This document shows, one piece after another, positions 5,033 through 9,822 of a DNA stretch of 38,716 nucleotides (its first letter is position 1; every line of letters starts with the position of its first letter). The notes below the pieces were generated by a model. That model saw nothing but the letters and a program-made list of their open reading frames with translations, was not told the DNA's origin and searched no databases. The position numbers and the translations under genes are program-made. Location of the stretch: NCBI GenBank assembly GCA_018061325.1, contig JAGOUJ010000008.1, positions 1-38,716 of the forward strand, written 5' to 3'. This DNA is from Gammaproteobacteria bacterium. Its GTDB lineage: Bacteria; Pseudomonadota; Gammaproteobacteria; UBA6186; Azoamicaceae.

Positions 5033-6460
5033 ATGAAAAAGACCCTTGTTTGGTTTCGTCAAGATTTACGCTTGGTTGATAACCCGGCTTTACATGCTGC
5101 ACTTGAACAGGGATCTATTCTGGCCATCTATATTTTAGAGGAAAAGAAGCAAGATTATTTTAGCATGGGATCTGCCAGCCGTTGGTGGTTGCATCATTCC
5201 CTTTCAAAACTTCATCAAAGCCTAAATAATCAATTGAATGTTTATATCGGCAATGCCCAAACCATTATTTTAAAGCTTATAGAAGCCTATAAAATAGAGG
5301 CTGTTTATTGGAATCGTTGCTATGAACCTTGGCGAATTTCTGAAGACACTTCTATTAAATCATGTCTTAAAAAAATAAACATCGATTGCAAAAGTTTTAA
5401 TGCCTCTTTACTATTTGAGCCTTGGGAAATCCTCAAAAGTGATGGAATGCCCTATAAGGTTTTTACACCCTTTTATCAGAGAGGATGTCTCAATGCCCCT
5501 TCACCCCGAACACCCCTAGGAAAACCTAAAAAATTAGACTGTATAGTCGATCGCTGCAACACCTTGTCTATCGAAACTTTAAATCTATTACCCACAATAC
5601 CCTGGCATGAATCCTTAGAAGCACATTGGACCGTTGGAGAAAAAGCCGCACACAAAAGATTCAAAGACTTTCTTCAAAAGGGTTTGAACCACTATCAAGA
5701 AGGCAGAAATTTTCCGGCCAGGTCCAATGTTTCTCGCTTGTCACCCCATCTGCATTTTGGAGAGATTTCCCCCCATGTACTGTGGCATACAGCCCAGATG
5801 GAAAAAATGAATGCCAAAACACCCTTGCACGATATTGAACACTTTGTCAGGCAACTGGTCTGGCGCGAATTCTCCTATTACCTTCTTTACCATTTTCCTG
5901 AACTACCTTACAAAAATTTTCAACGAAAATTCGATCGCTTCCCATGGCAAAATGATACGAGCCTTTTAAAAAGCTGGCAGAAGGGACAAACAGGCTATCC
6001 CATCGTAGATGCAGGCATGCGAGAGCTTTGGCAAACAGGCACTATGCACAACCGTGTGCGCATGATCGTAGGTTCATTTTTAGTCAAAAACTTAAATCTT
6101 GATTGGCGTCATGGTGCTGCCTGGTTTTGGGATTGCTTGGTCGATGCAGATCTGGCCAACAACAGTGCTGGCTGGCAATGGATCGCCGGATCGGGTGCTG
6201 ACGCAGCCCCCTACTTCAGGATTTTTAATCCCATTACCCAAGGTGAAAAATTTGATCTGGAGGGTATTTACACCAAAAGATTTGTGCCTGAATTAGCTAA
6301 GCTGCCCATCAAATATCTCTTCGAACCTTGGTCGGCCCCTTCTACTGTCTTAAAGGAAGCAGGCATTATTTTAGGAGAAACCTATCCCAAACCTATAGTC
6401 GATCTCCAACGTTCTCGAAAAAGCGCTTTGGAAGCTTTTGCAAGCTTAAGAGAAAGCTAA
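5033..6460 (+). CDS. phrB: Deoxyribodipyrimidine photolyase (CPD photolyase, class I)
   Basis: A 475-residue photolyase that uses light to split cyclobutane pyrimidine dimers. The N-terminal antenna domain starts MKKTLVWFRQDLRLVDNPAL, the classic photolyase opening. The C-terminal FAD domain has GYPIVDAGMRELWQTG, MHNRVRM, WFWDCLVDADLANN and GWQWIAGSG, including the tryptophans of the electron-transfer chain. Length equals the E. coli enzyme (472). It is distinct from the iron-sulfur photolyase encoded 2.4 kb away. There is no strong SD before the ATG. A short AT-rich hairpin covers the stop codon. Function is nearly certain. Confidence 0.96.
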   Translation: MKKTLVWFRQDLRLVDNPALHAALEQGSILAIYILEEKKQDYFSMGSASRWWLHHSLSKLHQSLNNQLNVYIGNAQTIILKLIEAYKIEAVYWNRCYEPWRISEDTSIKSCLKKINIDCKSFNASLLFEPWEILKSDGMPYKVFTPFYQRGCLNAPSPRTPLGKPKKLDCIVDRCNTLSIETLNLLPTIPWHESLEAHWTVGEKAAHKRFKDFLQKGLNHYQEGRNFPARSNVSRLSPHLHFGEISPHVLWHTAQMEKMNAKTPLHDIEHFVRQLVWREFSYYLLYHFPELPYKNFQRKFDRFPWQNDTSLLKSWQKGQTGYPIVDAGMRELWQTGTMHNRVRMIVGSFLVKNLNLDWRHGAAWFWDCLVDADLANNSAGWQWIAGSGADAAPYFRIFNPITQGEKFDLEGIYTKRFVPELAKLPIKYLFEPWSAPSTVLKEAGIILGETYPKPIVDLQRSRKSALEAFASLRES

Positions 6461-6475
6461 AAGGCTTTAGCTTTT
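6453..6475 (+). terminator. AT-rich hairpin over the phrB stop codon
   Basis: AAAGCTAAA (6453-6461), loop AGGC, TTTAGCTTT (6466-6474), then further T. The TAA stop lies in the left arm. The stem is perfect but AT-rich, so termination may be weak. Confidence 0.45.
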
Positions 6476-6507
6476 AATACCTATTCCCTCATGTATCCCC
6501 TTGTATC

Positions 6508-6537
6508 TTGCCTTTGACTACTGAAAAGTAGTTAAAT
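6508..6537 (+). promoter_or_regulatory. Candidate promoter of the IS110 bridge RNA
   Basis: TTGCCT (6508-6513), 18 bases, TTAAAT (6532-6537). The predicted start of transcription falls at the first hairpin of the structured leader (6541 onward). A perfect 6-bp hairpin ACTACT-GAAA-AGTAGT (6517-6532) occupies the spacer and could be a left-end feature of the element. Confidence 0.35.
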
Positions 6538-6716
6538 CGTCCAGGGGCACCTGGGCGAAGGGACAAGAAATGCCGTGTATCCCCTAAGGACTAAGATCCT
6601 GTAAATGAGATCCTGCAACTTGTCCCACTCTTATTCTATAAGACTGGACGGTATCTTCGGCCTCGAATATCGATGAGCCTGTATTCACAAGGTTAGTCTT
6701 GAATAAGCTGTCCAAG
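6538..6716 (+). ncRNA. Putative IS110 bridge RNA (remnant)
   Basis: Between the end of phrB and the transposase start is a noncoding leader that can fold into three successive modules. The first is a 5' hairpin CCAGG-GGCA-CCTGG (6541-6554). The second is a long loop closed by GGGACAAG (6560-6567) with CTTGTCCC (6619-6626). The third is a loop closed by TGGAC (6645-6649) with GTCCA (6710-6714). A 5' stem-loop plus two internal-loop modules of about 178 nt total is the architecture described for IS621 bridge RNA, where the loops guide target and donor recognition. The position upstream of the transposase suits the IS110 group. The fold was read by eye, without energy calculation or covariation, and the donor guide cannot be tested because the right end is missing. 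Confidence 0.55.
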
Positions 6717-6746
6717 TACTCGATGCTAGCACAAAAGGAGGATTTT

Positions 6747-7041
6747 ATGTCAAACACAAGCGTAGGAATTGATATTAGCAAGGCCAAATTTGATGCTGCT
6801 ATTTTTTGTTTTCAAACAACAAGGTAAAAACTAAAAAATTTGACAATAAACTCAGTGGTTTTGTAGAGCTAATAGAGTGGTTAAAAAAACATGAAGCTTT
6901 AGAACCACATGTTTGCTTGGAGGCAACAGGGGTTTATGGTGAAGCTTTGGCTACCTATTTGTTTGAAAATAGCTACAAGGTGAGCGTCGTTAATCCTACA
7001 CAAGTAAAGGGTTTTGCACAATCCGAATTAGCACGCACCAA
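6747..7041 (+). pseudogene. IS110-family transposase, N-terminal fragment, frameshifted
   Basis: The gene starts at ATG 6747 after AGGAGG with MSNTSVGIDISKAKFDAA, the RuvC-like (DEDD) domain opening with its first catalytic aspartate. In the poly-T tract at 6802-6807 the frame breaks. The remainder (SNNKVKTKKFDNKL, CLEATGVYGEAL, VNPTQVKGFAQSELART) continues in another frame and includes the conserved glutamate. One added T would restore the frame. Homology ends at 7041; the open frame runs on to 7132 through unrelated sequence. The later aspartates and the C-terminal serine domain are absent, so it cannot be active. Confidence 0.85.
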
Positions 7042-8381
7042 CAGGCTTGTACCGAAGGACTCTGTTCCAAAACGTGTTGCACTGCTTGTTGTAAAGCCGG
7101 CAAGGCGCTTGTCAGCGCTAGGATCTGCTTAGCACTAAAACGTTTGCTAAAAGCCAAAAAGACAGAACTTCTAATAAGACTGTCCGGTTTCCCCCTTACT
7201 TCATCATGCATAGCCTGTGTAAAATATAACTTGGGATGTAGCACCTCAAGCCCTTGTTTATTCAGCAAAGACACATAATAGATTAAGGGTGTTGTGGGCA
7301 GGCTTATAGAGCCCTTCCCCGCTAAAACATTTCCACCACTGTAATAGTCTGCATTAAACGTTGTGTTTATAGTTTTAAGTTCAAACTGACCCCTAAGTTG
7401 ACAGTCTCCATCTACAGAAGCAGTCCCTGCTTCCCATATTGATGAGCTAGAGCTTGAATCAATTTTTAAGGCGCCTGTTCCTAAATGACCCTGGTTATGA
7501 AAGGGTCCAATAATTTCCGTTGAATTTTTAATCTCAAAAAAAGCTACCATTAGACACAGCTATTGGCATCATTAATAAATGATCACTCACATAGACTGAT
7601 GGAACATCACGACCTAAAAATGTATAACCCGATTGGCAGCAATATCGACTTGATGGCCACGGATTTCACCCTTTTGATTTAAAACAGTGCCATGATTTAT
7701 CCTGAGCTTACACACAGGCTCTTCCTCAGACCCAATCTCCTCTTTATATACAATATAACCCTCTTCATTATCTAAAGTGAGGTCCTTTGCCTGTCCAGAA
7801 GCGCGTTCTAAAACCATCTCTTCTGCGTATAAGCGACCTCGATTGATAAGAGTACCTTGCGTCTTTAAGGTTTTTGCCTCTATCTCAACGTTTTTATCAA
7901 TTGAAAGGTTGGGTACCTGCAAGTGAAGATCACCCCCTATTTTTAAAGGCTTGCGCAAAACCACAGGTACGGTTGAAAACAACTTGATATTAAAACCAAG
8001 ATTGTCCAATTGTAGTGAAAATCCATGATCAGCGTACAAAGAGACAACGAAAGCATCTGCAAATGCCCCTAATTCAACAACCGAACGTTCTGCCGAGAAT
8101 TGCAGCTGTGTTGCAAAAAGTCTCTGAAGATTCTGACCCACTTGTTTTTCTATAACGAGCTTGTCGGCTGTTAAGCGAAAGATAAGGGACGGTAGCGCAT
8201 AGCTTTGTTGGGTTGCTGAATCGGCAGATAGCACCTGTCTGTTGCTATAGCCTACCTCGTCTAACCCACCCAATAGTTCATCCAGGGGATTTCCGAATTC
8301 ATCAAAAAGCTCTAGCTTTTCGTATTGGTCATCTGCGAATAGTTCGAAAGGCTCTAGGGTATCATCAGGTACAGTATGCAT
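7042..8381 (-). pseudogene. Large beta-helix/adhesin-like gene, frameshifted and 3'-truncated
   Basis: Two consecutive minus-strand open frames (8381-7614 and 7550-7042) are one broken gene. The first ends in the repeat-like text NHGTVLNQKGEIRGHQVDIA, which resembles filamentous-haemagglutinin-type beta-helix repeats, as do GTLINRGRLYAEEM and GNVLAGKGSISL. Between the frames, a third frame reads GRDVPSVYVSDHLLMM. Adding one T at the poly-T near 7616 and removing one at the poly-T near 7540 gives a continuous protein. The 3' end is cut by the IS110 remnant at about 7041, leaving roughly 446 codons. The acidic N-terminus (about residues 5-45) has no signal peptide or two-partner-secretion domain. 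I do not recognise a named protein; the repeat assignment is by pattern only. Confidence 0.6.
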
Positions 8382-8574: not shown

Positions 8575-9822
8575 CTATCTTCTGGGTTTTTTTGAGGGCC
8601 TAAGAAACAATGCAGCACACTTCTTCGCAGCCTCCTCATGTTGCTGCTCCGCAGCTTTTTGAAACCACTCTCCAGCCTTTTCAATATTTTTCTCACAACC
8701 AAAACCTTCTTCATACAATAAACCTAATCGGTATTGAGCATCGGGATGATTTTCTTTAGCTGCTGTTTCAAACCAACATTTCGCGACTATACATAATTCT
8801 TTGGCTTCTTGATCATTGTTTGCATGACGCACACTCACTTCATACATAAGACCCAGCTGATACATAGATTCCACATGCCCATGGTCTACCGCATGTTCTA
8901 AAAAATGTCGAGCATTATTATAATCTGCTTCAGGCTCTATATCATTTCTTAAAAAAACTATTTTCAAAATAGCAGGCGACAATGGTTCTATATCGTCCAA
9001 GCTTAAAGAATCACTGGATAGTTCGTCTAACTCAGGCAATTCTAAAAAATTAATGACGCCCTCTTTAGGTTTGTCAGAAAAAAAGCTAAGCGCCTTATAG
9101 TTAAGATCTAATCCATCATACTCAACATAGATTGTCCCTGGTTTTAAGTCTTGATTAGGCGATAAAAAATCAATTGTGTAACCGTCTGGAAGGAGTACCC
9201 CGTGTAGATATAATAAACCCAAGCAGTAAGATGATTCAGCATGATTTTTTTGACTCGCTTCTAAAAAATAATTTTTAGCTGTTTCGTGGTCTTGTATGAC
9301 ACCCCATCCTTTTGCATACATACATCCCAACTCGTGTAATGCTGCTGGATACTTATCCTTAGCGGCACCTTTAAACCACTCTCTAGCTATTTTATAGTTT
9401 TGTGCAACCCCATGCCCCCTAAGATAAAGCAGGCCCATTTTATATTGCGCGTCTACATGACCTGCATTGGCTGCAGCCTCATATAGCGCGATAGCCGTCG
9501 GATAATTTTTCTGATCCATTTCAATCAATGCTAAACAACACATGGCTTCTGTATGCTTCTTGAGACCTGCTCGCTGAAACCACCTTTTTGCAGTCTCATC
9601 ATTTTGCGTACACCCAAAGCCGTTTAGATAAAGCATCCCAAGCTGATATTGTGCTTCGACATGTTCTTTGTCCGCAGCCAATTCAAAAAAAGTAATGGCT
9701 CTTGAAACATCTTTTTCTATGGATTGGCTTTCATCACCTTCTAAATATTGTAAGGCCAGCTGATAATTTTCTTCAGGGGTTTGTTCTTGACCTCTCAGTG
9801 TATCTTGATTATCTGTGCGCAT
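8575..9822 (-). CDS. Sel1-repeat protein with an acidic central insertion
   Basis: A 415-residue protein built of about eight Sel1-like helical repeats (for example HVEAQYQLGMLYLNGFGC, HVDAQYKMGLLYLRGHGV and HPDAQYRLGLLYEEGFGC). Sel1 repeats form solenoids for protein-protein contacts and are frequent in host-interacting bacteria. Residues about 209-299 interrupt the repeats with a non-helical segment that begins LPDGYTIDFLSP, includes PGTIYVEYDG, and ends in a very acidic run (ELDELSSDSLSLDDIEP). No signal peptide is present, so it is cytosolic or secreted by a leaderless route. It neighbours the broken adhesin-like gene in the same orientation. Repeat class is certain; role is unknown. Confidence 0.88.
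   Translation of the reverse strand: MRTDNQDTLRGQEQTPEENYQLALQYLEGDESQSIEKDVSRAITFFELAADKEHVEAQYQLGMLYLNGFGCTQNDETAKRWFQRAGLKKHTEAMCCLALIEMDQKNYPTAIALYEAAANAGHVDAQYKMGLLYLRGHGVAQNYKIAREWFKGAAKDKYPAALHELGCMYAKGWGVIQDHETAKNYFLEASQKNHAESSYCLGLLYLHGVLLPDGYTIDFLSPNQDLKPGTIYVEYDGLDLNYKALSFFSDKPKEGVINFLELPELDELSSDSLSLDDIEPLSPAILKIVFLRNDIEPEADYNNARHFLEHAVDHGHVESMYQLGLMYEVSVRHANNDQEAKELCIVAKCWFETAAKENHPDAQYRLGLLYEEGFGCEKNIEKAGEWFQKAAEQQHEEAAKKCAALFLRPSKKPRR

What the first reader, a model, noticed from the sequence alone, without database searches (positions are those of the whole stretch)
6538..6716. Remnant bridge-RNA locus upstream of a dead IS110 transposase
The leader folds by eye into a 5' hairpin and two closed internal loops over about 178 nt, starting just after a promoter-like sequence. 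This is the architecture of IS110-group bridge RNAs, which guide DNA recombination. The transposase is dead but the RNA part appears intact, so it could still be transcribed and might act in trans with a related active transposase elsewhere.
Basis: partly seen in the sequence, partly recalled or inferred. Interest (0 to 1): 0.65.

Follow-up and report, generated by a model that had tools for sequence, protein, structure and literature searches.

The report
Leftover IS110 bridge-RNA gene
This is the left end of a truncated IS110 insertion sequence that still carries a complete, recognisable gene for the 'bridge RNA' which once guided the element to the very spot where it now sits; it is a clear but ordinary fossil of a known kind of mobile element, with no sign that it still works.

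Summary
Window 6500-6702 is the left end of an IS110-group element and contains a complete bridge-RNA gene: 5' stem-loop 6538-6557, target-binding loop closed by 6560-6567/6619-6626, donor-binding loop closed by 6640-6645/6695-6700. Homologous leaders precede intact IS110 recombinases in the same genus and across the class. Stems covary (25 of 33 pairs change on both sides; 0/500 shuffles). The guides match DNA as the bridge-RNA model predicts: in 16 elements the left target guide copies that element's own left flank (0/100,000 permutations as good), and in the window ten bases match exactly (6576-6585 = 6492-6501). The complete relative L015 also matches its right flank, 12 of 12 bases. The recombinase is dead: a frameshift near its start, truncation after about 99 of 319 residues, right end gone. 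The speculation about continued activity is not supported. In most intact copies the RNA's -35 box lies in the right end and meets the -10 box only in the excised circle; this copy has lost the right end, its flank has no substitute -35 (1 of 6 bases), and it cannot excise. Similar decayed loci occur in relatives. New member of a known kind; low to moderate interest.

The parts
6492..6501 (+). Left target (LT) with core CT (6500-6501): flanking DNA at the insertion point, TGTATCCCCT
   Evidence: Identical to the left target guide 6576-6585; 8 of 9 positions before the core match, against 1-4 for other elements' guides on this flank
6500..6509 (+). Left end of the element: core CT, right donor (TTGTA..), and -10-like box TATCTT at 6504-6509
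   Evidence: Conserved CTTGTATCTT start in relatives; 17 nt from TTGACA of the right end in the circles of L015, L018, L023
6517..6532 (+). Short hairpin in the leader (ACTACT/AGTAGT)
   Evidence: Sequence and helix; a similar hairpin is visible in close relatives, covariation not tested
6538..6557 (+). Bridge RNA 5' stem-loop
   Evidence: 8 of 8 pairs covary in alignment A2, 89.6% of cells paired
6560..6626 (+). Target-binding loop, outer stem GGGACAAG/CTTGTCCC, inner hairpin 6587-6600
   Evidence: Outer stem tested with different sequence in 16 elements
6576..6585 (+). Left target guide TGTATCCCCT
   Evidence: Exact copy of left flank 6492-6501
6602..6609 (+). Right target guide TAAATGAG; predicts original right target CTCATTTA
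   Evidence: By position in the alignment; the right flank of this copy is lost, so untested here
6640..6700 (+). Donor-binding loop, outer stem AAGACT/AGTCTT, inner hairpin 6659-6679
   Evidence: Covariation and, without a supplied structure, in RNAalifold on 16 sequences for the inner hairpin
6647..6656 (+). Left donor guide GACGGTATCT
   Evidence: Identical to the last ten bases of the right end of intact relatives such as L015 and L018
6684..6692 (+). Right donor guide TTCACAAGG
   Evidence: ACAAG is the reverse complement of the element's own left end CTTGT at 6500-6504 (read from the sequence)
6747..6827 (+). First 26 codons of the recombinase frame (MSNTSVGIDISKAKFDAAIF...), then frameshift and stop
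   Evidence: Sequence compared with L015
6806..7045 (+). Rest of the N-terminal DEDD domain in a second frame, truncated at about residue 99 of 319
   Evidence: 59% identity to L015 residues 20-99, E 6.7e-26; Pfam PF01548

Best explanation
The feature is the left end of an IS110-group insertion sequence, carrying a complete bridge-RNA gene in front of a destroyed recombinase gene. When the element was active (inferred from the family), excision would have made a circle in which the right end placed a -35 box 17 nt upstream of the -10 box at 6504-6509. The bridge RNA (about 6516 to 6702) would then be made and bound by the recombinase. Its target loop would pair with TGTATCCC-CT-CATTTA and its donor loop with the element's own joined ends, and strand exchange at the CT core would insert the element at 6500. 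A later deletion or rearrangement removed everything after about residue 99 of the recombinase, including the right end, and a frameshift hit the start of the gene. What remains is probably silent and immobile, and the RNA part looks intact because decay is recent. Shown here: homology, structure, the guide-flank match, the loss of recombinase and right end, the lack of a -35. Inferred: transcription in the circle, the mechanism of exchange, the recency of decay.
For: Intact relative L015 in the same genus matches leader plus ORF at 66% DNA identity with a full recombinase bearing PF01548 and PF02371. Covariation. Guide-flank test: left guide in 16 elements 114 matches against permuted mean 53, 0/100,000; right guide in 14 elements 49 against 32, 12/100,000; L015 12/12 on the right. 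Left donor guide equals relatives' right ends. A covariance model from 9 leaders finds the same RNA just upstream of recombinases not used to build it, such as L055, L071-L076, L080, L081, L083. Promoter split. Family definition: PMC11208160.
Against: No transcript data. The right target of this copy cannot be checked because the right end is lost, and no empty site was found in congeners. Rfam 15 has no match. The donor-loop outer stem is the weakest helix in the 16-element test with fixed search windows, in which nothing was found for seven elements, although it is well supported in the 9-sequence alignment.
Confidence: 0.95

Rival explanations
1. The bridge RNA is still expressed and supplies a second target specificity in trans to a recombinase from sibling elements in the same genome.
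For: Six contigs of the same genome end about 93-127 nt inside left ends of related elements (about 74% DNA identity to the window), four of them with the same left end after the same REP-like palindrome; this suggests a multi-copy, possibly active sibling. The donor guide of the window RNA fits the conserved CTTGT left end. Trans expression of a bridge RNA works for IS621 from a synthetic promoter (PMC11208160).
Against: No -35 in the flank (1/6), no promoter-like site in 6440-6900. No sibling recombinase is present in the assembly. The leaders differ by about a quarter, so recognition by the sibling recombinase is not assured.
Confidence: 0.05
2. The leader is kept by selection for a host function (for example a regulatory RNA or an RNA that represses sibling elements).
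For: All 33 pairs are canonical while the recombinase is destroyed.
Against: A young remnant explains this: the guide-flank match is still ten of ten, no worse than in intact copies. Other decayed copies in the genus and family have lost parts of the structure or of the gene (L052, L057, L058).
Confidence: 0.03
3. A chance fold of an ordinary 5' leader, with the resemblance to bridge RNA in the eye of the reader.
For: Single-sequence fold z only -1.43.
Against: Covariation, guide-flank match and model searches.
Confidence: 0.01
4. The recombinase is not dead: frameshift and truncation are assembly errors.
For: The assembly is fragmented (67 contigs) and breaks at sibling elements.
Against: This copy lies inside a 38.7-kb contig, and the sequence after 7045 continues as an antisense, itself broken, reading frame.
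Confidence: 0.04

Closest known systems
IS621 and the IS110 group of the IS110 family (bridge RNA, PMC11208160; structure PMC11208158)
   Same: Left-end RNA, 5' stem-loop, target loop then donor loop, left guides copying the left sides and right guides complementary to the top strand, CT core, short right end, promoter split across the circle junction, recombinase with PF01548 and PF02371 in intact relatives.
   Different: Different guides and host; this copy lacks most of the recombinase and the whole right end. A direct alignment with IS621 itself was not made.
IS1111 group of the IS110 family
   Same: Same recombinase superfamily and bridge-RNA principle (PMC11208160).
   Different: There the bridge RNA lies in the right end; here it lies in the left end.

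Membership tests
IS110-group bridge RNA | Encoded in the left non-coding end, upstream of an IS110 recombinase gene | tested here: met
   Window leader before the PF01548 remnant; same position in intact relatives
[quoted passage not shown]
   33 pairs in five helices with covariation
IS110-group bridge RNA | Left target guide equals the left flank | tested here: met
   10/10 in the window; 0/100,000 permutations over 16 elements
IS110-group bridge RNA | Right target guide complementary to the right flank | tested here: inconclusive
   Met in relatives (49 against 32, 12/100,000; L015 12/12); this copy has no right flank left
IS110-group bridge RNA | Donor guides match the element's own ends | tested here: met
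   Left donor guide equals relatives' right end; right donor guide ACAAG fits the window's left end CTTGT. The window's own right end is lost
IS110-group bridge RNA | Sigma-70 promoter formed across the joined right and left ends | tested here: met
   In 9 of 14 relatives a hexamer with 4-6 of 6 matches to TTGACA stands 17 nt before the -10 box in the circle; absent in this truncated copy
IS110-group bridge RNA | RNA of about 177 nt bound by the recombinase | not testable with these tools
   Needs expression and binding assays
Functional IS110 element | Intact DEDD recombinase with C-terminal serine domain and both ends | tested here: not met
   Frameshift, truncation at residue 99, no PF02371 region, no right end

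The most novel reading that the evidence does not exclude
An orphan bridge RNA, read from a chance host promoter or by read-through, is used in trans by the recombinase of sibling elements and gives them an additional insertion site.
Probability: 0.04. Interest if true: 0.6.

Novelty: new member of a known kind. Interest (0 to 1): 0.22.

Why it matters
The locus and its relatives are a clean natural record of RNA-guided insertion: the guide in the RNA still spells the DNA sequence where the element landed, even though the enzyme is gone. Such fossils let the target specificity of extinct copies be read directly. The elements are also further natural guide sets for the IS110 group. As a biological novelty it is modest: bridge RNAs and decayed insertion sequences are both known.

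Tried and rejected
Rfam (gathering, and permissive on 6450-6760) gave nothing. The DNA search of plasmids was empty. The genome-wide search for GACGGTATCT suggested right ends on contigs C5, C44 and C45, but these belong to another repeat whose copies share both sides of the motif; rejected as chance. A search for the sibling's right end with the sequence predicted from its right guide found nothing. No empty site of the window insertion was found in congeners; the match to the G001 photolyase stops before the intergenic part. One protein alignment failed because of stops in L016 and was not needed. The papers held mention no natural orphan bridge RNA: the two hits for 'orphan' are reviews of other subjects, which is no proof of absence.

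Full report
Observation. Window 6538-6716 was said to fold into a 5' hairpin and two closed internal loops in front of a dead IS110 transposase. The helices are there, and all 33 pairs are canonical, but the single-sequence fold is only slightly better than shuffles (z -1.43, 12/200). Evidence had to come from relatives.

Relatives. A search of the window's own genome and its relatives found the leader together with an intact recombinase in a congener (L015, 66% DNA identity over leader and ORF). Searching the class with that recombinase gave 19 further loci at 37-59% identity, nearly all with an open frame. The DNA upstream of those that could be read shares fixed landmarks: CTTGTATCTT at the element's start, CT and AG cores in the first loop, GACGGTATCT, and ACAAGG.

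Structure. In a MAFFT alignment of nine leaders the window's helices keep 81.6% of cells paired; 25 of 33 pairs show a change on both sides, 0 of 500 shuffles do as well, and slid versions fall to 34-47%. RNAalifold on 16 leaders, given no structure, returned the donor-loop inner hairpin with 7 of 8 pairs doubly substituted. MAFFT misaligns the fast-evolving target-loop outer stem, so I tested it by permutation: each leader's two arms fit each other far better than other leaders' arms (377 against 240, 0/20,000). A covariance model of the nine leaders then found the same RNA directly upstream of recombinases that had been found by protein search and were not used in the model.

Guides. In the bridge-RNA model (PMC11208160, read) the left target guide copies the left flank plus core, and the right target guide is the reverse complement of core plus right flank. 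I compared each element's guides with its own and with all others' flanks. Left: 114 matched bases of 144 against 53 on permutation, 0/100,000 as high. Right: 49 of 70 against 32, 12/100,000. L015 matches nine contiguous bases on the left and 12 of 12 on the right. In the window TGTATCCCCT at 6576-6585 equals 6492-6501, the DNA immediately before and including the core. Other elements' guides match that flank at only 1-4 of 9 positions. The left donor guide GACGGTATCT (6647-6656) equals the right end of intact relatives, and the right donor guide complements the element's left end. This is a bridge RNA by every feature that can be tested on sequence, apart from those that need the lost right end.

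State of the element. The ORF from ATG 6747 stops at 6825; homology continues in another frame from about 6806 to 7045, residue 99 of 319. Nothing of the C-terminal domain or right end remains, and no other IS110 recombinase is assembled in this genome. After 7045 the sequence belongs to an antisense, itself interrupted, reading frame without a Pfam match. A deletion or rearrangement therefore probably joined two broken genes (inference).

Transcription. In 9 of 14 intact relatives a hexamer with 4-6 of 6 matches to TTGACA stands in the right end exactly 17 nt before the left end's -10 box in the circle, as published for IS621. In the window that hexamer is CTATTC (1 of 6) and a scan finds no promoter in 6440-6900.

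Context. Six other contigs of the genome end 93-127 nt inside related left ends. Five carry the same left end (L003-L007); four of these follow the same REP-like palindrome, a usual kind of IS110 target (PMC11208160). The sixth (L002) has its own guide, which matches its own flank at nine of ten bases. The genome thus probably holds several IS110 copies that the assembler collapsed. Decayed leaders also occur in G001 (L052, L058), G008 (L057) and elsewhere (L070, L077). The window copy is an ordinary fossil, unusual only in its completeness.

Verdict. Interpretation right in substance, over-stretched on function. New member of a known kind, interest 0.22.

Noticed in passing
L003, L005, L006, L007 (G000 contig ends): Four IS110 left ends of identical sequence follow the same REP-like palindrome (CTCACCCCCGAC[CT]GCTAAAGCGGTCGACCC), with the contigs breaking inside the element: a multi-copy sibling missing from the assembly.
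   Followed up: partly
L038, L043, L044 (G000 contigs C5, C44, C45): Another dispersed repeat (TGACTTCCGAGACGGTATCTC..., with a palindrome, apparently followed by a short ORF) happens to contain the IS110 donor motif GACGGTATCT and lies at contig ends.
   Followed up: partly
window 6996-8381 (-): Antisense reading frame interrupted by a cluster of stops at about 7550-7616, without Pfam match, running into the truncated end of the IS remnant: probably a second pseudogene at the rearrangement junction.
   Followed up: partly
L059 (G001 contig C124) 147-1603: A divergent IS110 recombinase (about 25% identity) is followed directly by another bridge-RNA left end, as in a tandem or nested insertion.
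   Followed up: no
right ends of L019, L023, L024, L025, L027, L028: The recombinase stop codon TGA falls at the TTGAC -35 box of the circle promoter in many relatives, so the right end is barely longer than the donor sequence.
   Followed up: no
window 8575-9822 (-): Sel1-repeat protein next to the remnant (Pfam Sel1, E 6.6e-46).
   Followed up: no
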